NCBI GenBank assembly: GCA_016871775.1
Contig: VHCI01000011.1
Coordinates: 1 to 48,112, forward strand
DNA from: Verrucomicrobiota bacterium
Lineage (GTDB): Bacteria; Verrucomicrobiota; Verrucomicrobiia; Opitutales; Opitutaceae
Length of the DNA stretch: 48,112 nucleotides
Direction: 5' to 3'
A program made the position numbers and the translations under genes. The notes beneath the pieces are model-generated. The model worked only from the letters and a program-made list of their open reading frames with translations. It was not told where the DNA came from and ran no database searches. Numbering within the stretch: the first letter of the stretch is position 1; each line of letters begins with the position of its first letter. This document shows positions 5,148 through 16,554 of the stretch, piece after piece.

Positions 5148-6323
5148 TCAGGGCGCCGCGGCGGCCGCGGGCTTGCCGAGCGCGCGCTCGAGCCCGTGCT
5201 CCTCGAACGCCTTGCCGGACATCTCCAGCTTCGCCCGCTCGCGGTCCGTGGTCGCGGACAGGTCCTCCGGCGTGCGGATGACGTGGGGCGTGAGGAAGAT
5301 CAGGAGTTCCGTCTTCACGTCCGTCTTCTGCTTCCGCTTGAAGGCGAGGCCGACCAGCGGGATGTCCCCCAGCAACGGCACCTTGCTGTCGCGGTCCCCC
5401 AGTTGCGAGGAGATCAGGCCGCCAATCACGATCGTCTTGTCGCTGGGCGTGACGACCACCGTGTCCGCCGAGCGCTTGTCGATTACCGGCGAGCTCACGT
5501 TGTTCCCGATCGGGACGGTGGTTGCGCTCAGGGAGGAGATCTCGGGCGAGACAATCATCTCGACCAGCCCCTCCTGCGTGATGAAGGGGGTCACCCGCAG
5601 GATGATGCCCACATCCTGGTACTGGACCGTGTTGATGGTGGTGTTCGTCTGGTCGCTCACCCGCGAGTTGGTGATGATCGGCACCGACTGGCCCACCATA
5701 ATCGTGGCCTGCTGGTTGTTGCGGGTGAGGACCGAGGGGCGGGAGAGGATCTCGGTCTTGGTGACCGCGGAGAGGGCGCGGAGGGTGGCGGTGACGTCCT
5801 GACCCAGAATCCGGTAGAACGCCCCGTACTGCGTCCCGTCCGCGAGCGCATCGGCCACCCCGAAGCGGGTGGTGGCGATGCCGCGGGGCTCCCCCTTGAC
5901 CGCGAGGGTACCGTTGAACAAGCCCTCCGCCCCGAGGTCGACCCCTTGGTCGTGGGTGACCTGGACAAAGACCACATTGATGAGCACCTGCGGCTTGGGC
6001 TGGTCCAAGCTGGTTATAATGGTGCGGATGTTCTCGTTGGTCTCTTCGTCGGTCACGACGATGAGGCGGCGGGTCTGGAGATCGCTGGAGATCATCGCCT
6101 CACCGACCATCGTCGAGTTGGTGTACTCACGCGTCGAGCCGGCCGAGCCGCCCCCGCCGCTTCCACCGGTGCTGGCGCGGGAGGAGGTGCCCGACATCGT
6201 CGAGGGCCGCGGGGTGCTGGAGGTGTTGGGACGAGCGCCGCCGGAGCTGGGCGCCTGGGCGGCGTGGAGGAGGGCGGAGAAAACGAGGGCGAGGGCGGCC
6301 GCGAGCCGGAAAGGGAGTTTCAT
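5148..6323 (-). CDS. gspD: T2SS secretin, C-terminal half (end of N3 plus secretin barrel)
   Basis: Outer-membrane channel part of the type II secretion secretin, 391 aa. It has its own signal peptide (MKLPFRLAAALALVFSALLHA), then a Ser/Gly-rich stretch to about residue 65. Residues about 74-107 are the second half of an N3 domain (RRLIVVTDEETNENIRTII). The secretin domain follows, with SRPSVLTRNNQQATIMVGQS and the signature VPLLGDIPLVGLAF. The N0-N1-N2 domains are absent here and are encoded by the gene just upstream, 19 bases away. The two products would have to assemble together. The family call is firm; the two-chain assembly is inferred. Confidence 0.93.
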   Translation of the reverse strand: MKLPFRLAAALALVFSALLHAAQAPSSGGARPNTSSTPRPSTMSGTSSRASTGGSGGGGSAGSTREYTNSTMVGEAMISSDLQTRRLIVVTDEETNENIRTIITSLDQPKPQVLINVVFVQVTHDQGVDLGAEGLFNGTLAVKGEPRGIATTRFGVADALADGTQYGAFYRILGQDVTATLRALSAVTKTEILSRPSVLTRNNQQATIMVGQSVPIITNSRVSDQTNTTINTVQYQDVGIILRVTPFITQEGLVEMIVSPEISSLSATTVPIGNNVSSPVIDKRSADTVVVTPSDKTIVIGGLISSQLGDRDSKVPLLGDIPLVGLAFKRKQKTDVKTELLIFLTPHVIRTPEDLSATTDRERAKLEMSGKAFEEHGLERALGKPAAAAAP

Positions 6324-6342
6324 GACGGGAGGAGCGGAGGGT

Positions 6343-7581
6343 TCAGCGGACCCCGCGGGTGCCGAGGGTGATATTGGAGCCGGTGGCCTGGGAGTTGGCG
6401 GAGGCGCGGGTCGAGAGCGGATCCACCTCCTGCGATCCCGTGGCGCGCACGTTGCTGCCTTGGAAAAGGTTCCGCAGCACGCTCTCCACCTGTTTCACGT
6501 CGCCGTGCTCGAGGGAATAGACGAACACCTTCTGCTTGCGCGCCGTGCTGGCATCGAGCTGGCGGATGATGCCGTCGACGTCCTCAAGGGTTTCCTTCGA
6601 GGCGCTGACGATCACCGAATAGGTGCGCGGGTCGGCCACCGCCACCACGGGAGTGCCGCGGGAGGAACCGCCGCTGGAGCGCGAACCGCGGCTGGACGAG
6701 GCGCTGGAGCCGCGGCCACCGGGGCCGCCAGGCGCGCCGGAGCCGCGGGCGGCCGCCATCGCGGCGATGGCCGCTCCGGGACCACCCCCAAAGCCGGGAA
6801 AGCCCCCGAAACCGGGCATCTGCGGCTGGCCGGAACGGGTACCGGACTGGCCGCCCCCAAAGATATTGTTGATGAGCGCCGCCATCTCCTGCGGATCGGA
6901 GTTCTTTAGCTGGAAGACCCGCATCGAGGAAACGGAGCCGGCGGAACCATCGAGCGCGGACAGCAGCTGGACGATATGACGGACGTTGCTCTGGGTATCC
7001 GTCACGACCAGCGAGTTGCTGTCGAGGTTCGCCGTGACGGTGGCGGAGTTGGGCAGGAGCGTGGCGAGGTCCGACGCGGCCTGGGCCGCGTCGATCCGCT
7101 CCAGCGGGATGATCTGCATCACCATTTCCGCGTTGTCGGGGATCTGGCGCGGATCGTTACCAGTGCGGATCGGGATGGCGCGCTTCCGCGCGTCTTCCTT
7201 GGAACTTACCACGAGGGTGCGACCCTTCAGGGTGGCGGTGTAACCATTTGCATTAATCGCCAGATTGAGCAGCTCGACCGCCTCGGTCCGCGAGACTGGT
7301 TGGGCGCTCCACATGTCGATCGTACCCCGAACCGGGGTCTCAAGCACGATCACGAAGCCCGCGGCCTCGCTGAGGTAGTTGAGGACCGTCTCCAACGGGG
7401 CGCCGCGGAAGTTAAAGCGGAGGCCGGTCGAGGTGTCGCGAGCGGGACGCTCGGGCGCCGCGGGGGCAGACTCCGAGGCGGGAGACGTGTCCGGGGCGGC
7501 GGCCACGGCCCGGGCGGGCAGGAGGGCTTCGCCCAACAACGTTAGGCTTAGGAGCAGGGGCAGGATGGGCTGGGTGTTCAT
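6343..7581 (-). CDS. gspD: T2SS secretin, N-terminal half (N0-N1-N2 and start of N3)
   Basis: Periplasmic part of GspD made as a separate 412-aa chain. A signal peptide (about 1-28) is followed by N0 (about 54-128, LRFNFRGAPLETVLNYL), N1 (about 151-212) and N2 (about 219-345). N2 is interrupted by a Gly/Ser/Pro-rich loop (about 242-309). The first strand-helix half of N3 is at about 351-375 (VFVYSLEHGDVKQVESVL). The chain stops in what is normally the Ser/Gly-rich N3 loop, and N3 resumes in the next gene. The stop is genuine: the next gene has its own start and signal peptide. Its start overlaps the GspC-like gene by 4 bases. Confidence 0.92.
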   Translation of the reverse strand: MNTQPILPLLLSLTLLGEALLPARAVAAAPDTSPASESAPAAPERPARDTSTGLRFNFRGAPLETVLNYLSEAAGFVIVLETPVRGTIDMWSAQPVSRTEAVELLNLAINANGYTATLKGRTLVVSSKEDARKRAIPIRTGNDPRQIPDNAEMVMQIIPLERIDAAQAASDLATLLPNSATVTANLDSNSLVVTDTQSNVRHIVQLLSALDGSAGSVSSMRVFQLKNSDPQEMAALINNIFGGGQSGTRSGQPQMPGFGGFPGFGGGPGAAIAAMAAARGSGAPGGPGGRGSSASSSRGSRSSGGSSRGTPVVAVADPRTYSVIVSASKETLEDVDGIIRQLDASTARKQKVFVYSLEHGDVKQVESVLRNLFQGSNVRATGSQEVDPLSTRASANSQATGSNITLGTRGVR

Positions 7582-8165: not shown

Positions 8166-8710
8166 CGGCGGCCTTCCAGCGGCGCGAGCCGCAAGCCGCT
8201 CACCAGCAGGCCGAGGGAGAGATTGCCTCCCGACTCATCCCGCGAGTTGAGCTCCAGGGAATCAATCCGCAGAGCGAGGGGCGATTTCTCGACCTCGTGC
8301 AGGAATCGCACGATCGCGGACAGCGGTCCAGTGACATCCACCCGACACTCTAGCAGCGAGTACTGGCTGGTTTGGCCCCGTTTCCACTGCGGCTTGATCG
8401 AAGCCACCTCCACCCCGCCCGCGCGGCCCCAGCGGTCAAAGGCGGTCAGCAGGTCCTGCTCCGCCTTGGCCGGATCCGTGGGCAGCGCCTCGCCTTGCAT
8501 TTCCTGCCAAAGCCCGCGCATCCGCTCCCCGCGGACAACAGTGGACTCGCCCTCCGTGACCAACTTGCCCAGCCGCGCGATCTCAGCGCTCCGCGCCTTC
8601 CACGCTCCGGTCAGAGGACTGATGACCAAACCGTCCAGCAAGAGCAGGGCCAGCGCGACCCCAGCGAGGATCAGCAGTAAACGTTGTCGGTCCAAAGCGG
8701 ATTTCTTCAT
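8162..8710 (-). CDS. GspM/PilO-like T2SS assembly platform protein
   Basis: 182 aa from the ATG at 8710, which overlaps the stop of the previous gene (ATGA); an open frame extends further upstream but inside that gene. One N-terminal TM helix (LLLILAGVALALLLLDGLVI) is followed by a coiled-coil-like stretch and a ferredoxin-like domain (LLECRVDVTGPLSAIVRFL, LALRIDSLELN), the plan of GspM and PilO. These dimerise with GspL/PilN in the inner membrane. Gene order (GspL-like then this one) agrees. Confidence 0.75.
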   Translation of the reverse strand: MKKSALDRQRLLLILAGVALALLLLDGLVISPLTGAWKARSAEIARLGKLVTEGESTVVRGERMRGLWQEMQGEALPTDPAKAEQDLLTAFDRWGRAGGVEVASIKPQWKRGQTSQYSLLECRVDVTGPLSAIVRFLHEVEKSPLALRIDSLELNSRDESGGNLSLGLLVSGLRLAPLEGRR

Positions 8711-10101
8711 GGCGTGGTCCCTCCGCTCCAGCGGAATTTGAAGGTGAACTGGGCCGGGGTCTTGCCGCGGATCTGCTCGATCTTGACCGCCTGAACCTCC
8801 CGCGACTGGCGAAGCAGGTCCTGCGTGCGCAGGAGCGAGGCGTTGTCCCGGGCGGTGCCGGAGACCGTGACGTTGGTCTGCCCTTGGATCTCGAAGGACT
8901 TGGCCGTGACGGCCCCGGTCTCCGGGAAGCATTCGGTCACCTTGCGCAGGATCGAGAGGTTGCGGAACGAGGTGTCGTGCCAGGAACGGTACTCGCGGAT
9001 GCGGGCCTGGACGGTCTCGAGTTCCTTGACCGCGGGGGCCATCGCCTCCCAGCGCGAGCGGAGGGACCACAGCCGGTACTCCTGCCAGCCGAAGCCAAGG
9101 CCCGTCAGCAGGAGCAGAGCCGCCACCGCCGCGCCGGCCGTGGCGAGGCGCCGGGAACTGTACCGGGCGGCGAGCTGCGCCCAACGACTGGGACGGGGCG
9201 GCAGGAACTCAAGGCCCCCAGCCTCCCCCACGGCCCACGCCCGCGCCAACCTTTCGACCAGTTCCTCGCCCGGAACGCGGCCCGGTCCGGCCTTCACCAC
9301 CTCGACCCCGGCTTCGGCCGCCCATCCCTCCACTGCCGTCGCCAATGCCCCGGCCAAGGCCGGATCACCCTGCAACGCGAGCCGACGGAGGACCGGCCGC
9401 ACCGCCTCCGGCACCTGCTGTAACGTGATGCGCAGCTCGCGCAGCAGCGCCGCCGAGTGCAGCACCCGTTCGCCCGCCTCCGACTCGATCGTCGCCTCGA
9501 GGGCGCGCCAAGCCACCACCGCTCCCTGCAGGCCGACGAGCAGGACCGCACCGTCGCCCTCGAGCCAAAGCGTGAACTGGCCTTCCGTCGCGGCGCCGAG
9601 CGCCCCGGACACTGCGGGCAAAGCCAGGGTGAAGCCCGCCGAGCGTAGCCCCGCGGCCCGCAGCACGAGGTCCAGCTTGTCTAACTGCGCCCGCGCCACC
9701 GCGAGGAGAGTCACTCGCCTTTCACCGCCCGCCTCCCACACCGAGCGCACGATCTGCAGTTCCTCGGGCGCGCTCGGGAAGCCGCGCTCCGCGGCCAATT
9801 GCAGGAAGCCGTCGAGATCGTCCCCGACCAGACCCGGCGGAACCGCCAACGAGAGAGTCATCACCCACGCGGGCGGGAGCGCGACCACCCCGTGCCGCTC
9901 CTTAGCTCCCGCGGCCTCCAATTGGTTCCGGATTTCCCGCCCGACCAGTTCAGGCTCGGGATGCAGCAGGTCGAGCGTCAGCGGCGCGCTAAACGCGCGC
10001 ACCTCCAGCGGCGCGGATTTGCCGCGGCGGACCAGCGCGGCGCGCAGGTGGCCCGGCTCTAGGGCTAGGACCAGAAAGGAGGGGGGCGGGCGTTGGCTCA
10101 T
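8707..10101 (-). CDS. GspL-like protein (PilM-type actin fold plus PilN-type membrane part)
   Basis: 464 aa. The N-terminal roughly 300 residues have the actin-like pattern of PilM/GspL cytoplasmic domains (FLVLALEPGHLRAALVRRG, GVVALPPAWVMTLSLAVP, LLAVARAQLDKLDLVLRAAG). A single TM helix (AAVAALLLLTGLGFGW) follows, then a coiled coil and a PilN-like periplasmic domain (TNVTVSGTARDNASLL). GspL proteins tether the GspE ATPase to the inner-membrane platform. It overlaps gspK upstream and the GspM-like gene downstream by 4 bases each. Domain type is clear; calling it GspL rather than a PilM-PilN fusion follows from the T2SS context. Confidence 0.8.
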   Translation of the reverse strand: MSQRPPPSFLVLALEPGHLRAALVRRGKSAPLEVRAFSAPLTLDLLHPEPELVGREIRNQLEAAGAKERHGVVALPPAWVMTLSLAVPPGLVGDDLDGFLQLAAERGFPSAPEELQIVRSVWEAGGERRVTLLAVARAQLDKLDLVLRAAGLRSAGFTLALPAVSGALGAATEGQFTLWLEGDGAVLLVGLQGAVVAWRALEATIESEAGERVLHSAALLRELRITLQQVPEAVRPVLRRLALQGDPALAGALATAVEGWAAEAGVEVVKAGPGRVPGEELVERLARAWAVGEAGGLEFLPPRPSRWAQLAARYSSRRLATAGAAVAALLLLTGLGFGWQEYRLWSLRSRWEAMAPAVKELETVQARIREYRSWHDTSFRNLSILRKVTECFPETGAVTAKSFEIQGQTNVTVSGTARDNASLLRTQDLLRQSREVQAVKIEQIRGKTPAQFTFKFRWSGGTTP

Positions 10102-11435
10102 AGGCGATTGCGGGTCTCCCGCAGCAATTGGCGGGCGCTCGGGCCGAGGGCCCAGCCGCTGGCCGCGAAGTCTTGATGGTAAACGATCCGCGGGGTCGAA
10201 CGGCTCGCGTCAAAGACGGTGCGCGTCCGGGCATAGCCCCGGCCCCCGCGGGCCGCGGCGACCACGTCCGCCGTGAACTGATAGGAACGATCCGTAATGT
10301 ACGGCCCAGCGCGGGTGATCGCGCCGCGGCTCAGAACTTGCGTGAGCCAAGCGAAGGAGCCGCGCATCGCGTCGGGATTCGCCCGCCGATAGGCCACCAG
10401 CGCCGCGGCGTTCTCGGGCCCAATGCCCGGGATGCAGCCCAACACCACCTCGCACGCGGTGTTCACGTTGATCCGGCCGGTCACGGTCGAGCCCGAGCTG
10501 GTCGTCAACTCATCGCGGACCTGCGCCCATTCCTCCGCGGTGAACCGTCCCTCCACCATCAGTTCCGCGGGGCTGCGCAATTCCTGGCCGCCCAGCGCGC
10601 GCGCGATCTCCTGGGCGCGGCCGCCGCCCAGCCGGCCGAGCAGCTCCCGGAAGGCCGGGGACTGCCGGGCCTGCGTCGTGGCGACGTTCAGCCGCCGGGA
10701 GCCATCGGGCCGGGTGTTCGGCTCGCGGCTGTAAACCGTCACATACTCAAGGATCCCCGGCTGGATCAGCCCGTCCCCGTTATCGCGCGGCGCCGACTGG
10801 TCGCCATCGTTCTCGTTCTCATCGAGGATGCCGTTCCGGTTCACATCCTCACCCAGCAGGACGTCAAGCGTCGCGCCGTAAACCAGCCGCAGCTCGTCCA
10901 CGGTCTCGAACGGCGCGCCCTTGTTCAGCCGCGGGGGATCGAGCAACCCGTAGGTGCTGTCGCCGCCGCCGCTTTGGCTGCGGGCACGCCACGCCACGAT
11001 CGCGTCGACCAGCTCGGGCGTGATGCCTGGGAGCAGCTCCAACATCGAGCGCGGCGCAGAGTTGAGATTGACCTTGGAGGACTCGTCGACCAACCGGAAG
11101 ACCGGCTGGTCGCCCGGACGCTGGTCCGGATCACGCCCCAGAAACCAGAAGGCCGCCCCCCCCACCGCGAGGGCCTCGGCTCGGTAATCCTCCGGATGCG
11201 GCACCACGCCGTTCAAGCCGAACTGGCCCAGCACGAAGGCCGCGTACCGTGTCCCCGCAAGCGCCGCCTGCCGGGCCTCGGTTTCCATCACCTGGTTGTC
11301 CGCCGCCCGCAGTTCCGCGGACATCTGGTCCGCCGAGTAAACGGCCAAGGCCACTAGGCCCAGGCAGACCCAGAGAACAATGATCATCACGGAGCCGCGG
11401 CGTCGCGCGGTCCCAGAGCGGGAATCGCGGCTCAC
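10098..11435 (-). CDS. gspK: T2SS minor pseudopilin GspK
   Basis: 445 aa. The basic leader (SRDSRSGTARRRGS) precedes a hydrophobic helix (VMIIVLWVCLGLVALAVYSA), as in GspK, which lacks the usual FTLxE site. The body has two helix-hairpin-helix-like segments, SKVNLNSAPRSMLELLPGIT and INVNTACEVVLGCIPGIG. An acidic calcium-type loop, DVNRNGILDENENDGD, lies between them. GspK caps the pseudopilus tip together with GspI and GspJ. It sits directly after gspJ with a 4-base overlap, the expected tip-complex order, although it is longer than many GspK proteins. Confidence 0.9.
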   Translation of the reverse strand: MSRDSRSGTARRRGSVMIIVLWVCLGLVALAVYSADQMSAELRAADNQVMETEARQAALAGTRYAAFVLGQFGLNGVVPHPEDYRAEALAVGGAAFWFLGRDPDQRPGDQPVFRLVDESSKVNLNSAPRSMLELLPGITPELVDAIVAWRARSQSGGGDSTYGLLDPPRLNKGAPFETVDELRLVYGATLDVLLGEDVNRNGILDENENDGDQSAPRDNGDGLIQPGILEYVTVYSREPNTRPDGSRRLNVATTQARQSPAFRELLGRLGGGRAQEIARALGGQELRSPAELMVEGRFTAEEWAQVRDELTTSSGSTVTGRINVNTACEVVLGCIPGIGPENAAALVAYRRANPDAMRGSFAWLTQVLSRGAITRAGPYITDRSYQFTADVVAAARGGRGYARTRTVFDASRSTPRIVYHQDFAASGWALGPSARQLLRETRNRL

Positions 11436-12142
11436 GGCAGCGCGCCCTCCTCCTCCGCCGCCACCGTCGCGGTCGTCTTGACCAGCAGCGGCACCACGAC
11501 CTCGTACGTGCCTGCGGGACCGCCCGCCGGATCACCGGCCAAGACGAGGCTAAAACGCAGCGCCCCGGGCAGGGTATCGGTCGCGGTCGAATCCCAAGCG
11601 TCGGTCCAGCCTAGGCCATCAAAATAGCTCAGCCCCGCGGACTCGACCCCGGACAGCACCAGTTCCTCCTCCGGAAATACCTCCTGGACCGGCAGCAGGT
11701 TACGGGTGACGGCCCGAATCAGGTCACGCCCGCTCCCGCCGGCGGCGGAGGGCACGAGGAAATACGCCACGCGCTGCTGATCCGCGAAGGGCGTCCACCC
11801 GTCGATGCGCCCGGTGTTGGTGCTCAGGTTGGGGGTCACCCGCTCCCCAATCGCATCCGTCATCGAACCGGAGAACGGGCTCGTCTGCAGGCCCTGTGCA
11901 AGGGAGGTCTCGCCACCCGGGAGCATCAAGCCGGCCAAATCGCGGCGCAGGATGCCCACCGCCCGCTGGACCCGCCGGTCCTCCTCGATCCGGAGGTGGG
12001 TGGTCTGGTGCAGCCGCAAGGCCCCGAAATAACTCGTCTGGATCACGATCAGCACGATCGACCCGACGACGATGCCGATCAGCAACTCGAGCAGCGTGAA
12101 CCCCCTTGGAGCGCCGCCCTGGATTGGACGCCCGCGCCGCAT
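11432..12142 (-). CDS. gspJ: T2SS minor pseudopilin GspJ
   Basis: 236 aa from the ATG at 12142 (its A is shared with the gspI stop, TGATG). The longer open frame upstream is inside gspI. The prepilin cleavage/methylation site is GFTLLELLIGIVVGSIVLIV after a basic leader (MRRGRPIQGGAPR), with E at +5. The body fits GspJ: ERRVQRAVGILRRDLAGLMLPG. GspJ forms the pseudopilus tip with GspI and GspK. Cleavage needs a prepilin peptidase, which is not in this window. Confidence 0.88.
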   Translation of the reverse strand: MRRGRPIQGGAPRGFTLLELLIGIVVGSIVLIVIQTSYFGALRLHQTTHLRIEEDRRVQRAVGILRRDLAGLMLPGGETSLAQGLQTSPFSGSMTDAIGERVTPNLSTNTGRIDGWTPFADQQRVAYFLVPSAAGGSGRDLIRAVTRNLLPVQEVFPEEELVLSGVESAGLSYFDGLGWTDAWDSTATDTLPGALRFSLVLAGDPAGGPAGTYEVVVPLLVKTTATVAAEEEGALP

Positions 12143-12555
12143 CAGCCCTCCCCTCCGGTGGCGTTCTCCGCGGTGCCCGCCGCCGGCAGGAGCGTGGCTA
12201 AAGCGATTTCCTGCGCCGAACCGCGCACCGAAAAGGACACCGTGACCGTCGCCTGCTGCAGAGCATCCTCGGGCCAATTCTCCAACCGCACAGACCAAGG
12301 GTACTCAAACGGCCCCTCCCTCGCCACGCCACTGGAGGCGCCGGTCGCGAGCTGGCCCTCGGCTAGCAATTCGCCCAGCACCCGCTCTCCCACCCGCACG
12401 GCGGCCGCCTTGCGCTGACCGAGTTCACCCGCGCGGCTCGCCACGGCCATCGCCTCCATCGCCACCGGCACCACCAGGGCGATGAGCATCAGGGAGGCCA
12501 GCACCTCCACCAAAGTGAAGGCCCGCCGCACGGAACGCGGTTCAGGGACGCGCAT
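12142..12555 (-). CDS. gspI: T2SS minor pseudopilin GspI
   Basis: 137 aa from the ATG at 12555, which lies 14 bases inside gspH; residues further upstream are unlike a pseudopilin. The leader MRVPEPRSVRR is followed by the type IV pilin motif AFTLVEVLASLMLIALVVPV. The segment AASRAGELGQRK-like to VGERVLGELLAEGQL then matches the GspI helix. It is the core of the tip complex with GspJ and GspK. The position between gspH and gspJ is canonical. Confidence 0.87.
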   Translation of the reverse strand: MRVPEPRSVRRAFTLVEVLASLMLIALVVPVAMEAMAVASRAGELGQRKAAAVRVGERVLGELLAEGQLATGASSGVAREGPFEYPWSVRLENWPEDALQQATVTVSFSVRGSAQEIALATLLPAAGTAENATGGEG

Positions 12556-13114
12556 CGGGAATCCGGATCGCATAACCAAGCCGGTTGGCCGTGAGCGCAA
12601 TTTCCAGCGCGCTCCCCTCGTTCTGGCGAAGCACCACCCGGGGCGGGGCCGCGGGATCGGGAAAACCATCGGGGTTGAAGCGGATCGCCGGCCGGTCTCC
12701 GGCGAGACCGAGCCGCTCGTCGTCCTGCTCGGAAACCAGCTCAGGCCCGGTTACGGCCACCTCGACTCGCAGGCTCGGTTCGAGGGTGAACTCGAGTCGG
12801 CGCACCTCCCCGAGGCCACCAAAACCCGGCGCCGGCTCCACGCCATAGGCCAAGCGGACCGGATCAAACCAGACCACCACCGGCACCGCCTCGGTCGCCG
12901 CCTGGCTACGCGCGTAATGCAGAAGGGAGAGGACCCGTTGCGCCTCGCCGCTAAGCGCCCGCCCCCTGAAGAAAGCGGACATCCGCGGCGTCACCAGCGA
13001 CGCCACGGTCAGCAGCAGCACCATCACCGCGATCAGCTCCACCAGCGTGAAGCCACGCCGCCCCGCGGGAGGCCGCGGGACGCGCAGAAGGCGATCGTGA
13101 TGGAGGGCGCTCAT
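12542..13114 (-). CDS. gspH: T2SS minor pseudopilin GspH
   Basis: 190 aa. The leader ends in PPAGRR, then the prepilin site GFTLVELIAVMVLLLTVASL. The helix continues with ALSGEAQRVLSLLHYARSQAATEAVPVVVW, split here as typical GspH text: an early helix, then beta strands ending in IRFNPDGFPD and VVLRQNEGSALEIAL. GspH links the major pseudopilin shaft to the tip complex. It starts 16 bases after gspG and overlaps gspI by 14 bases. Confidence 0.88.
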   Translation of the reverse strand: MSALHHDRLLRVPRPPAGRRGFTLVELIAVMVLLLTVASLVTPRMSAFFRGRALSGEAQRVLSLLHYARSQAATEAVPVVVWFDPVRLAYGVEPAPGFGGLGEVRRLEFTLEPSLRVEVAVTGPELVSEQDDERLGLAGDRPAIRFNPDGFPDPAAPPRVVLRQNEGSALEIALTANRLGYAIRIPDARP

Positions 13115-13130: not shown

Positions 13131-13592
13131 TCAATTCGCGGCCACTCGGCCGTTCACGAGGTCATCGGCAGTGTTCGCCTGGCCATCGGGACCGATGGAA
13201 CGCAGGTCGTACCCGGAAGGGTTCACCCGGCCCGGGAACTCGTACAGGTAAGGGCGACCCCAGGGATCGGCCGGGATCTGGCTCTTCAGATAAGGCCCGC
13301 GCCAGTTGGTCACGTCCGCCGGCGCCACCACCAGCTGGTTAAGGCCGTCTTGACCCCGGGGATAGCTGCCGGTGTCCACCTCGAAGGCGTCCAGCGCCGT
13401 GCCGAAGGTCGAGATCTGGGTCTGCGCCGCCGTGACCCGCGCCTGCTCGGTGCGGCCCGTAAATTTCGGGAGCACCAGCGAGGCTAGGATGCCAAGGATC
13501 ACGAGAACCAGCAGCAGTTCGACGAGCGTAAAGGCGCCGCGGCGGGCGCCCCGGAGGGCACGGGGGGGACGGGAGGTCATGGGTGAGGTCAT
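13131..13592 (-). CDS. gspG: T2SS major pseudopilin GspG
   Basis: 153 aa from the ATG at 13592, whose ATGA overlaps the expected gspF stop. The prepilin site is GAFTLVELLLVLVILGILAS. It is followed by the GspG signature TAAQTQISTFGTALDAFEVD, TGSYPRGQDGLNQLV, the PYLKSQIPADPWGRPYLYEF strand and the acidic C-terminal region SIGPDGQANTADD, which binds calcium in GspG. It polymerises into the pseudopilus. Because of a base insertion in gspF, gspG appears in-frame fused behind gspF in a raw translation. The start is chosen from the family and the ATGA junction. Confidence 0.93.
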   Translation of the reverse strand: MTSPMTSRPPRALRGARRGAFTLVELLLVLVILGILASLVLPKFTGRTEQARVTAAQTQISTFGTALDAFEVDTGSYPRGQDGLNQLVVAPADVTNWRGPYLKSQIPADPWGRPYLYEFPGRVNPSGYDLRSIGPDGQANTADDLVNGRVAAN

Positions 13593-14834
13593 TTGATGTG
13601 GTCCTGCAGGGAGAAGATTGGGATCACCATCCCGATGAAGATGGTGCCGATCAGCGCCGCGATGACGAAGAGCATCACCGGCTCCGCCAGGGCCACGACC
13701 GCCTTGAGCTGGGCGGTCGAGGTCGCCCTCGGTCGTGTTCGCGATGCGCAGCAACTCGGCGTCCAGCTTGCCGCTCTCCTCGGCCACGGAGATCATCTCC
13801 ACCACCGCCCCGGGGAAGAGGGCGCGGTTCTGGGCGAGGCTCTTGCCCAGCGCCTTGCCCTCCTTGACCCGGTCGATCGACTCCGCCACCGCATCGACCA
13901 AAATCTGGTTGCCGATCGAGCGCCGCGCGACGTTGAGCGCGCTGATCAGGGGCACTCCCGCGCCCAGCAGGGTGCCCAGCATCCGGCAGAACCGGGCCAT
14001 CGCGAATTGGGCCAGCAATGGGCCCAGCGCGGGCACGCGCAGAATCCAGCCTTCCCACGCCCGGCGGCCGCGTGGGGAGCGAAACCAGTGCCGCGCCGAG
14101 ATGGCCGCCACCGCCAGCCCGGCGGCCAGCAACAGCCCGTAGCCGCGCACAACATCGCTCACCCCCACGATCATCCGGGTGATTAAGGGCAGCTCCGCAT
14201 TGAATCCTTGGAAAACTAGCTGGAACCGCGGAATGAAGAAGACCAGCAGGAAGATCAGCACACCTAGGGCCAGCACCAGTAGGATCGCCGGATACATCAG
14301 CGCCGTCGCCACCTTGCCTTTGAGCTCCTTTTCCCGGGCCTGGAAGTCCGCGATCTGGGCGAGCACCACATCGAGGAAACCACCGGCCTCCCCCGCCTCG
14401 ACCATCGCGACATACACCCGCGGAAAGGTCTCGGGCGAACGCGCCATCGCGTCCGACAGCGGCATCCCGTCGATCACGAGGTCGTGCAACTCCTTCCACT
14501 TCACCTTGGCCGCCGGCTCCGCCGCCTCGCGGTGGATGATCACTAGGGCGCGGCTGAATGGCACCCCCGCCGCCAGCAGGCTCGAAAGCAGCCGCGTGAA
14601 GTTCTCCAAGGTTCGCGCGGAGATCTTGTTCCCGCCGCCGAAGGCGAGGCGCAACCCCGGACCCGCCCCCGCATCGGCGCCGCCGCCCACCGCACCAGTG
14701 GCCTCGCCCAAACGGACCGGACGCAGCGCCCGACCTTCCACCAACCGCAACGCCTCCTGCCGGTTCGGGGCCTCGATCAGCCCTTCGACCGCCACCCCAT
14801 CCGACTGCAGGGCCTTGTAGGCGAACTGGGGCAT
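13589..14834 (-). pseudogene. gspF: T2SS platform protein GspF, frameshifted 40 codons before its end
   Basis: Polytopic inner-membrane platform protein that contacts the GspE ATPase. The start MPQFAYKALQSDG and the two T2SSF repeats (LENFTRLLSSLLAAGVPFSRAL and FCRMLGTLLGAGVPLISAL, each followed by TM helices) are intact. After IANTTEGDLDR the frame is lost at the GGG run 13711-13713. With one base fewer it continues QLKAVVALAEPVMLFVIAAL and IGTIFIGMVIPIFSLQDHIK, then stops at 13589. That is the normal GspF C-terminus and would overlap gspG by ATGA, giving about 414 aa. Everything else is intact, so this is either a very recent mutation or an assembly/sequencing error. Without correction the last TM helix is lost. 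Confidence 0.88.
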
Positions 14835-14841
14835 CTTCGGA

Positions 14842-16554
14842 TCAGGGGGCCGCCGGCGAATTCACCGCGCGAGGGTCCTCCTCATGGACCGTCGTCACAC
14901 TCAGGATTTCCTCGATCGTGGTCTGGCCCTCGCGCACCAGCCGGCGACCATCTTCCGCGAGGGTAGTCATACCCGCCCGACGCGCCGCCTCGCGGATCAC
15001 ATCCGTGGAGGCGTTCTGGAGGATCAGCTGGCGGATTTCATTGCTGGTGTCCATCCACTCGAAGATCGCCTGCCGGCCGTGGAATCCCGTTTGCCGGCAC
15101 TCGTGGCAACCCACCGCCCGGTAGATCGGGGTCTCGTTCGGGATGCCGATGTGGCCCCGGTACGCCCGCGCGGCCGGCGAGTCATCCACCGCCTTGCACT
15201 TCGGGCACAGCAACCGCACCAACCGCTGCGCCAGCACCGCCTCCAAGGACGAGGCCACTAAGTAGGGCTCCACGCCCATATCCACGAGCCGCGTCAACGC
15301 GCCCGGGGCATCGTTGGTGTGGAGGGTTGAGAAGACCAGGTGGCCCGTCAGCGAGGCCTGCACCGCGATCTGCGCCGTCTCCTGGTCGCGGATTTCTCCG
15401 ATCAGGATCACGTCGGGATCGTGGCGCAAAATCGACCGGAGCCCCCGCGCGAAGGTCAGCCCGGTCTTCTCCGAGACCTGAATCTGGTTCACGCCCCGCA
15501 GCTGGTACTCAATCGGATCCTCAATGGTGACGATCTTTCGCTCGGCGTCGTTGATCTCCTGGAGGGCGGTGTAGAGTGTGGAGGTCTTGCCGCTGCCGGT
15601 AGGGCCCGTGACCAGCACGATGCCGTGGGGCAGCTCCAACACCCGGCGCAGGCAACGGTACTCGCGCTCGTGCATCCCGAGGTCGCGGACACCGCGCAGG
15701 GCCGCATTCTGCCGCAGCAGGCGCATCACCACCGCCTCGCCGTGCAGCATCGGGATGATCGAGACGCGGATGTCGACCTCGGCGGCCTCGATCCGGACCT
15801 TGATGCGGCCGTCCTGCGGCAGGCGCTTCTCCGCAATGTTCAGATGGCTGAGGATCTTCACCCGCGCCACAATCGCCGGCTGGAACTTCTTAATCTGCGC
15901 CGGCACCGGCACCTCCTGTAGCACGCCGTCGATCCGGTAGCGGATCCGCAACTCCTCCTCGAAGGGCTCTAGGTGGATGTCGGAGGCCCGCAGCTCGATC
16001 GCGTCCTTGAGGACCTGGTTGACGAAACGGATGATCGAGGCGTCCTCCGCCGCCTCGTCGAGATTGTTCCCGGCGGCCGCGTTCTCGTCGACCACCTGCA
16101 GGCCTCCCTCCTCCTCAATTGAACCGATGGTGTCGGCCCCCACCCCTAGCCGTTTCTTCATCTCCCTCTGGATCGCCTCCGACGGGGCCAGTACCGGTCG
16201 CAGGCGCAGTCCCGTCAGGGCCCGGAGCCCGTCCAACCCCTGAGGGTCGAACAGGCGGCTGGTCGCCACCTCGATCTGATGGTCAATCCGCCGCAACGGC
16301 AGCAGTTCGTCGCGGAGCAACAGGCGCGCCGGGAACAGCGCCAGCACCTGCTTGTCCGGCTCCAATTCGTCGAGCCGGGTGAACGGCACCCCATACTCGC
16401 GGGCCACCCAGCGCAGGACCGCCTCCTCCCCCGTTTCCGGCGCCCCGGGCTGGCGCAGATAGGCACGGGCGTCCGCCTCGGTGAGTTGGCGGGCGGCCAC
16501 CATCCGGGCCAACGGCTCGGGCAGGGCGGCAGAGGGCGAGGAGACGGCAACCAC
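14842..16554 (-). CDS. gspE: T2SS assembly ATPase GspE
   Basis: Cytoplasmic hexameric ATPase that powers pseudopilus assembly, 570 aa, GTG start. The N-terminal T2SSE_N domain (about 1-140) docks to GspL. The ATPase domain has Walker A GPTGSGKT (317-324), the Asp box (IVTIEDPIEY, about 341-350), Walker B DVILIGEIRD (381-390) and the His box GHLVFSTLHTND (about 404-415). A CPKC...CHEC four-cysteine zinc site lies at about 450-485, as in GspE/PilB. It starts 6 bases after the exported leader protein and ends 7 bases before gspF. Confidence 0.95.
   Translation of the reverse strand: MVAVSSPSAALPEPLARMVAARQLTEADARAYLRQPGAPETGEEAVLRWVAREYGVPFTRLDELEPDKQVLALFPARLLLRDELLPLRRIDHQIEVATSRLFDPQGLDGLRALTGLRLRPVLAPSEAIQREMKKRLGVGADTIGSIEEEGGLQVVDENAAAGNNLDEAAEDASIIRFVNQVLKDAIELRASDIHLEPFEEELRIRYRIDGVLQEVPVPAQIKKFQPAIVARVKILSHLNIAEKRLPQDGRIKVRIEAAEVDIRVSIIPMLHGEAVVMRLLRQNAALRGVRDLGMHEREYRCLRRVLELPHGIVLVTGPTGSGKTSTLYTALQEINDAERKIVTIEDPIEYQLRGVNQIQVSEKTGLTFARGLRSILRHDPDVILIGEIRDQETAQIAVQASLTGHLVFSTLHTNDAPGALTRLVDMGVEPYLVASSLEAVLAQRLVRLLCPKCKAVDDSPAARAYRGHIGIPNETPIYRAVGCHECRQTGFHGRQAIFEWMDTSNEIRQLILQNASTDVIREAARRAGMTTLAEDGRRLVREGQTTIEEILSVTTVHEEDPRAVNSPAAP

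What the first reader, a model, noticed from the sequence alone, without database searches (positions are those of the whole stretch)
5148..7581. Secretin split in two inside the N3 loop, each half with its own signal peptide
GspD is normally one chain, N0-N1-N2-N3-secretin. Here N0-N2 and the first half of N3 form one gene, and the second half of N3 plus barrel forms the next, which has a new signal peptide and Ser/Gly-rich start. The break falls exactly in the variable N3 loop, so the two exported chains could recreate an intact N3 by fragment complementation. The genes are 19 bases apart with clean starts, so this is not a simple frameshift. It would be a two-chain secretin ring.
Basis: partly seen in the sequence, partly recalled or inferred. 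Interest (0 to 1): 0.65.

Follow-up and report, generated by a model that had tools for sequence, protein, structure and literature searches.

The report
Conserved two-chain type II secretin
The outer-membrane gate of a protein-export machine, normally built from one protein, is here made from two separately encoded proteins that seem to complete a shared domain between them, and a whole lineage of Verrucomicrobiota bacteria has kept it that way.

Summary
Confirmed. On the minus strand a 412-aa chain (7581-6343: N0, N1, N2, first beta-alpha of N3) is followed after 19 bases, in another frame, by a 391-aa chain (6323-5148: hydrophobic leader, linker, rest of N3, barrel), at the end of a type II secretion cluster. 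It is no recent stop or assembly error: of 113 loci examined, all 99 with clade-level barrel scores (321 bits or more) are split there; the other 14 (136-182 bits) are other secretins. Split barrels form one clade, 100/99. The frames of the two chains are unrelated (33/32/30 of 95), against programmed fusion. N3a has the lowest dN/dS (0-0.03, five pairs, tied once). AlphaFold2 models of chains joined through their linker rebuild N3 (pLDDT 72-95), and the minimal one superposes on N3 of solved GspDs at 1.0-2.7 A. Single-chain GspD is common elsewhere in the phylum. The only precedent found, rhizobial RhcC1/RhcC2, is a partial gene replacement in a type III system. A new variant of GspD; completion of N3 between chains is inferred, not shown.

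The parts
6343..7581 (-). Chain 1 (gspD1): leader, N0, N1, N2, first half of N3, conserved tail; 412 aa
7225..7416 (-). N0 domain (residues 56-119 of chain 1), the part that binds GspC in known T2SS (recalled)
   Evidence: Pfam PF21305
6550..6924 (-). N2 domain with Gly/Ser-rich insert (residues 220-344)
   Evidence: Pfam PF03958 best stretch; alignment
6454..6543 (-). N3a: beta1-alpha1 of N3 (residues 347-376), lowest dN/dS of the segments compared
   Evidence: modelled in relatives
6406..6423 (-). Short tail motif DPLSTR (residues 387-392) after N3a
   Evidence: pattern found in 92 of 96 chain-1 tails against 12% of shuffled tails; low-confidence short helix in both models
6324..6342 (-). 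19-base gap between the stop of chain 1 and the start of chain 2
5148..6323 (-). Chain 2 (gspD2): leader, linker, second half of N3, secretin barrel; 391 aa
6252..6323 (-). Hydrophobic leader of chain 2, signal-peptide-like (about residues 1-24)
   Evidence: sequence; hydrophobicity filter; not tested with a predictor
6132..6251 (-). Ser/Gly/Thr-rich variable linker of chain 2 (residues 25-64)
5955..6131 (-). N3b: R-x-Y-x-N box plus beta2-beta3-alpha2 of N3 (residues 65-123)
   Evidence: modelled in relatives
5274..5777 (-). Secretin barrel domain (residues 183-350)
   Evidence: PF00263
7578..8165 (-). gspC-like gene, overlaps the start of chain 1
   Evidence: weak NCBIfam GspC match, 17 bits
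8162..8731 (-). gspM-like gene
   Evidence: sub-cut-off matches
8707..10101 (-). gspL-like gene (PilM/PilN-like)
   Evidence: sub-cut-off matches
10098..11435 (-). gspK
11432..13114 (-). gspJ, gspI and gspH pseudopilin genes
13131..14834 (-). gspG and gspF, run together in this assembly by a frameshift near the 3' end of gspF
14842..16554 (-). gspE-like ATPase gene, named from its translation (no family search run)
   Evidence: relatives in first place of the cluster in L083-L085

Best explanation
This is a two-chain GspD. Each half is translated from its own start and probably exported through Sec by its own leader. Chain 1 supplies the periplasmic vestibule (N0-N2) and ends with beta1-alpha1 of N3. 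Chain 2 supplies beta2-beta3-alpha2 of N3 and the outer-membrane barrel. In the periplasm beta1-alpha1 of chain 1 docks on chain 2 and completes N3, so a ring of about 15 pairs (15 chains in most solved GspD entries) replaces the usual ring of single chains. Shown: the two genes, the position of the break, its conservation, co-occurrence of the chains, selection on N3a, and that joined chains of relatives model as a closed N3. Inferred: export of both chains, 1:1 association, ring formation, secretion. Not decided: whether N3a completes its own partner or the neighbouring subunit.
For: 99 of 99 loci with a clade-level barrel score are split, 98 of them with an ATG plus hydrophobic stretch after the stop by an automatic rule. 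The split barrels are monophyletic, 100/99 support, in all 200 bootstrap trees. 21 of 113 class genomes carry a strong chain-1 match (E at most 3.3e-45); by handle, all 21 also carry chain 2. dN/dS of N3a is 0-0.029 in five of five pairs, against 0.2-0.6 in the chain-2 leader and linker where it could be computed. The model of the joined L038 pair has N3a and N3b at pLDDT 72-90 per ten-residue block, with the same order of elements as N1 and N2, and its residues 353-799 superpose on single-chain EPEC GspD 5w68 at 5.1 A over 243 residues, Z 12.8. A minimal N3 model from another family (L072) has N3 at pLDDT 85-95 and superposes on N3 of nine solved GspD entries at 1.0-2.7 A over 59-67 residues, Z 8.6-9.8, e.g. 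ExeD 6i1x 1.0 A/59; the first non-secretin row has Z 7.4. The genes end a gsp cluster in the window and in L084 (E to C), L083 and L085 (all but gspC detected) from other families of the class.
Against: No experiment. The models join the chains with a long linker, which favours closure; AlphaFold2 was trained on solved structures that include single-chain secretins, and pTM is low (0.41, 0.44). They are models of relatives (L038, L072), not of the window's pair. Foldseek alone gave no match at E <= 0.001 for the minimal model (best 0.1) and aligned mostly 30-38 columns, i.e. one half. N domains share one fold, so several rows match N1 or N2 rather than N3. Signal peptides were judged by hydrophobicity only. 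The window's own start of chain 2 has no Shine-Dalgarno-like motif; 29 of 95 loci do, against 16% at random places. N3a is only 30 codons long, and in one pair the tail of chain 2 also had dN/dS of 0.
Confidence: 0.8

Rival explanations
1. The chains are separate devices: chain 2 alone forms the outer-membrane channel with an incomplete N3, and chain 1 is a detachable periplasmic adaptor bridging GspC and the channel without completing N3, as proposed for RhcC1 in rhizobial type III secretion.
For: Abby and Rocha (passages) argue that RhcC1 was kept as a linker between SctD and a barrel of other origin. The tails and linkers around the break are long and variable.
Against: N3a would have no partner, yet it has the lowest dN/dS; the models put it into N3; and chain 2 goes from leader and linker straight to beta2 of N3 in the alignments made.
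Confidence: 0.13
2. Domain-swapped ring: N3a of each chain 1 completes N3b of the neighbouring chain 2, so the split ties adjacent subunits together. This is a form of the best explanation with different connectivity, and its odds are part of it.
For: The disordered stretch between N3a and N3b is about 115-130 residues in the joined models, long enough to reach a neighbour; a conserved tail motif could set the register.
Against: Nothing here favours it over pairing within one protomer.
Confidence: 0.2
3. One protein after all: ribosomal frameshifting or stop read-through joins the chains.
For: The gap is short (median 34 bases), and in about a third of loci the frames happen to agree.
Against: The frame relation is random (33/32/30 of 95), the stop is TGA, TAA or TAG (42/41/12), and a hydrophobic leader sits in the middle.
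Confidence: 0.02
4. Artefact: recent stop, pseudogene or assembly error in a single-chain gspD.
For: The window is from a 274-contig assembly and gspF in the same cluster carries a frameshift.
Against: The same break occurs in 99 loci, including one-contig assemblies (L025 from G071, size; L064 from G399, size); dN/dS is low in the folded parts of both chains.
Confidence: 0.01

Closest known systems
GspD / PulD / XcpQ, single-chain secretin of type II secretion
   Same: N0-N1-N2-N3-barrel order, gsp cluster context, best NCBIfam model TIGR02517 for both halves, fold of joined relatives
   Different: Two polypeptides broken inside N3, each with its own leader; neither half alone reaches the TIGR02517 cut-off (165 and 245 of 351 bits)
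RhcC1/RhcC2 (HrcIIC1/HrcIIC2), secretin in two genes of rhizobial-type T3SS
   Same: N-terminal part and barrel are separate genes; described as a split secretin gene (passages of PMC3574062; passages of PMC3459982; whole text of PMC4500985)
   Different: There the barrel is Tad-derived and replaced the original barrel, the two genes are not adjacent (one opposite ORF or more between them), and the system is type III. Here both halves match the same GspD model, lie next to each other, and are broken inside one domain
Tad secretin RcpA/CpaC and filamentous phage pIV
   Same: Short barrel chain with few N domains (recalled); pIV superposes on N3 plus barrel of the joined model (4.5 A over 212 residues)
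   Different: They are complete as one chain (recalled); chain 2 here lacks beta1-alpha1 of N3 and was never found without chain 1 among the 99 split loci

Membership tests
GspD (T2SS secretin) | GspD-type N0 domain | tested here: met
   PF21305 39.6 bits over cut-off 27 in chain 1
GspD (T2SS secretin) | Secretin_N ring-building domains | tested here: met
   PF03958 98.5 bits, two stretches
GspD (T2SS secretin) | Secretin barrel domain | tested here: met
   PF00263 162 bits; 164.5 bits
GspD (T2SS secretin) | Over the TIGR02517 equivalog cut-off (351 bits) | tested here: inconclusive
   Each chain alone is below it (165 and 245 bits); a split relative, G557, passes when its neighbouring frames are counted together (458.7 bits)
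GspD (T2SS secretin) | All domains in one polypeptide | tested here: not met
   Two ORFs in different frames, each with its own ATG; 99 of 99 loci. So it is filed as a two-chain variant that works like GspD, not as an ordinary GspD
GspD (T2SS secretin) | Gene lies in a gsp cluster | tested here: met
   gspF-K clear, L/M/C-like weak; cluster order in L083-L085
GspD (T2SS secretin) | Forms an outer-membrane ring and is needed for secretion | not testable with these tools
   needs biochemistry
RhcC1/RhcC2 split secretin | N part and barrel encoded by two genes | tested here: met
RhcC1/RhcC2 split secretin | Barrel gene of Tad (CpaC) origin | tested here: not met
   best NCBIfam model of chain 2 is GspD (245 bits), then PilQ (151); no Tad model among the eight listed. 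No Tad secretin was put on the tree by name
RhcC1/RhcC2 split secretin | Type III secretion cluster, halves not adjacent | tested here: not met
   gsp cluster; halves adjacent, median gap 34 bases, 86 of 95 within 60

The most novel reading that the evidence does not exclude
A whole lineage of Verrucomicrobiota builds its T2SS gate as a modular hetero-oligomer: a barrel crown of chain 2 onto which a separately exported vestibule of chain 1 snaps by completing N3 in trans, perhaps between neighbouring subunits, with the conserved L-x-x-R tail motif as a latch. Assembly, exchange or gating of the vestibule could then be regulated apart from the channel.
Probability: 0.3. Interest if true: 0.8.

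Novelty: new variant of a known kind. Interest (0 to 1): 0.62.

Why it matters
Secretins are textbook homomultimers of one chain. A clade in which every examined member encodes the T2SS secretin as two chains broken inside a ring-building domain gives a natural way to assemble barrel and vestibule separately, and so to ask in what order secretins assemble, whether N3 must be closed for gating, and how GspC binding reaches the barrel. It also warns annotation: neither half alone passes the GspD cut-off, so such systems may be called incomplete.

Tried and rejected
Recent frameshift or stop: rejected by conservation and dN/dS. Programmed frameshift or read-through: rejected by random frames. Single-chain copy of the same lineage: none among 113 loci. 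The eight single-chain rows fall outside the split clade, as do the six loci without an N-domain hit (open frames 318-664 aa), which were labelled single in the tree. The tree carries long-branch warnings for L120, L126, L121, L082 and others; the join of giant and PilQ-like rows beside the split clade is not to be trusted.

Rows left out before counts: 13 of the 126 loci then held were left out of the census (L001-L003, L048-L052, L082-L086), as repeats of loci already in it or as other stretches. L005, L007 and L009 were dropped as near-copies before the tree; L054 also before (no automatic start). The 99 split loci still hold near-copies (e.g. L005 and L034). The automatic start rule is rough: L054 failed it though it has an ATG with a later hydrophobic stretch, L057's picked start is probably too early, and L067's chain 2 starts 805 bases after the stop, in a stretch without a clear gene. 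In one search, 10 loci were left out beforehand and 36 more lost because my motif patterns did not fit them; 53 remained, and 35 of these went into alignment A4 (17 joined pairs, 18 pairs of separate halves). A3 held 18 joined pairs and 15 pairs of separate halves. For the class, loci were fetched for all 57 genomes outside the family with a clade-level hit.

Joint model of the window's own pair: not made, because no four-letter code word was unique in its frames; a close relative with agreeing frames (L038) was used. Foldseek on the minimal model was uninformative. Genomes of other phyla were not searched (genome search was run up to phylum; the one genome-contig scan used close peptide patterns). 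Among plasmids, 514 records match at E <= 1e-20; the 25 listed are 31-35% identical, most annotated as GspD or secretin-domain proteins, and their architecture was not examined. Papers: searches found no report of a split GspD; the library holds only open-licence papers, so this is weak evidence of absence.

Full report
What is there. The window lies in a 3.78-Mb, 274-contig assembly (96% complete); the 14 relatives found in the named collection are titled Opitutaceae, Opitutae, Opitutia, Opitutus or Verrucomicrobia/Verrucomicrobiota. On the minus strand a type II secretion cluster runs gspE, F, G, H, I, J, K, L-like, M-like, C-like, then the two secretin genes (gspE is named from its translation, and L, M and C rest on matches below their cut-offs). 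Chain 1 (7581-6343) has N0 and two Secretin_N domains; chain 2 (6323-5148) has the secretin domain. The GspD model covers profile positions 1-290 with chain 1 and 245-598 with chain 2. The stop and the next ATG are 19 bases apart and the frames differ. Two genes that read like a sensor kinase and an NtrC-type regulator follow (translations, not searched against families).

It is not an accident of this genome. Of 150 genomes of the family, 24 (own included) carry a chain-2 relative of 53% identity or more, and 126 do not; of seven members of the genus sampled, three do. Fourteen further loci came from the named genome collection. Class-wide, 62 of 384 genomes have a clade-level chain-2 match (61 at E <= 1e-94 and one partial at 9e-74); phylum-wide 9 of 387 at E <= 1e-60, four of them outside the class. 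A census script examined 113 loci: the 99 with chain-2 scores of 321 bits or more are all split; 8 single-chain loci and 6 without an N-domain hit score 136-182; nothing lies between. The 99 include the window and a few near-copies. A tree of 111 barrels puts all 96 split barrels kept for it on one side of one branch with 100/99 support. Chain 1 searched the other way gives 23 of 113 class genomes with a match, 21 of them strong (E <= 3.3e-45; the other two are single-chain ORFs of 752 and 767 aa), and by handle all 21 carry chain 2 as well.

Single-chain GspD is the ordinary form around it. So one lineage was split and then kept split.

Two chains, not one. Over 95 loci chain 2 starts in each frame relative to chain 1 about equally (33, 32, 30); the stop of chain 1 is TGA 42, TAA 41, TAG 12; the median gap is 34 bases and 86 of 95 are within 60. 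A mechanism that fuses the chains would need a fixed frame. Shine-Dalgarno-like motifs precede 29 of 95 starts against 16% at random, a modest excess; the window's own start has none.

Where the break falls. N3 of a secretin is beta-alpha-beta-beta-alpha. Chain 1 ends after beta1-alpha1 and a tail; chain 2 brings the rest. N3a shows dN/dS of 0, 0, 0, 0.029 and 0.029 against five relatives, the lowest of eleven segments each time (tied with the tail of chain 2 in one pair; 30 codons only); N3b 0.05-0.12; the chain-2 leader 0.31-0.59 in the four pairs where it could be computed, and the linker 0.21-0.50. A fragment that should not fold alone yet is so constrained must have a partner; this last step is inference.

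Models. Because no code word fitted the window's frames, a relative with agreeing frames, L038, was read through its stop and modelled with 17 other joined pairs and 30 separate halves. N3a (strand 354-359, helix 365-376) and N3b (strands 510-514 and 519-524, helix 526-539) have block pLDDT of 72-90; residues 400-505 between them are below 50. VIA-align superposes residues 353-799 on EPEC GspD 5w68 at 5.1 A over 243 residues (Z 12.8), 353-787 on PilQ 6ve4 at 4.4 A over 233 and 353-783 on pIV 7ofh at 4.5 A over 212; each of these starts in chain 1. Longer matches such as 6i1x or 6hcg have rmsd above 25 A, presumably because the domains are placed differently along the chain. A second, minimal model from another family (L072, 16 other joined pairs and 36 halves) gives N3a and N3b at pLDDT 85-95, and both together superpose on N3 (assigned by residue range, partly recalled) of nine solved GspD entries at 1.0-2.7 A over 59-67 residues, Z 8.6-9.8: for example ExeD 6i1x 1.0 A/59, V. 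cholerae 9k8v 1.4 A/59, E. coli 5wq7 1.9 A/62, XcpQ 5wln 2.0 A/67. The first row that is no secretin has Z 7.4. Since N3a and N3b are about 30-40 residues each, these lengths need both halves. Against this: the chains were joined, pTM is 0.41 and 0.44, N1 and N2 of other entries match as well because the domains share a fold, and Foldseek alone found nothing significant for the minimal model.

An extra conserved element. After N3a, 92 of 96 chain-1 tails hold the pattern [NDSTRG][PASTGQVNRI]L-x-x-R within the last 85 residues, against 12% of shuffled tails; one of eight single-chain secretins matched in the loop region inspected, which was located only roughly. Both models make it a short helix of low confidence (pLDDT about 40-57). 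In the 30 family rows chain 2 has an invariant R-x-Y-x-N box and a Gly five residues on, just before N3b. These two are the first places to look for a latch.

Known relatives. The only secretin in two genes that I found in print is RhcC1/RhcC2 of rhizobial type III systems and its Pseudomonas homologue (passages, whole text of a commentary). There a Tad-type barrel replaced part of the original secretin and the genes are not adjacent. Here both halves match the same GspD model and lie side by side. Nine paper searches showed no split GspD; many subscription papers are not in the library.

Verdict. A conserved two-chain GspD, old enough to span many families of the class, whose halves most probably complete N3 between them. 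I file it as a new variant of a known kind: it works like GspD, but it fails the single-chain feature of ordinary GspD.

Noticed in passing
L082:1987-14412 (+), and class genomes listed: Giant secretins: an open frame of 4,142 codons with a hydrophobic leader, N0-like start, 32 Secretin_N stretches and a GspD-type barrel at the C terminus. In one search (capped list) at least 17 of 384 class genomes have chain-2 matches in open frames of 2,928-4,363 aa, and 15 of the 17 also carry the split chain 2; only L082 was examined. If real, a periplasmic tube with dozens of stacked N-domain rings.
   Followed up: partly
window 13131-14834 (-): gspF and gspG form one ORF because the frame of gspF shifts near its 3' end; in a same-genus relative (L127) they are two separate ORFs. 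Assembly error or real damage, not decided.
   Followed up: partly
window 6406-6423 (-), chain-1 tails of other loci: Conserved L-x-x-R tail motif of chain 1, 92 of 96 loci; function unknown.
   Followed up: partly
L085 and many of L053-L076, chain 1: Chain 1 of many members outside Opitutaceae carries one more Secretin_N domain (three Pfam stretches in L085; double HMM hits, not in all) than in the window, where a Gly/Ser-rich insert sits instead.
   Followed up: no
G000:C71:5970-6563 and G000:C7:8551-9030: Two further secretins in the same genome with open frames of 933 and 714 aa.
   Followed up: no
L067, between the two chains: An 805-base stretch separates the chains in this locus, without a clear gene.
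   Followed up: partly
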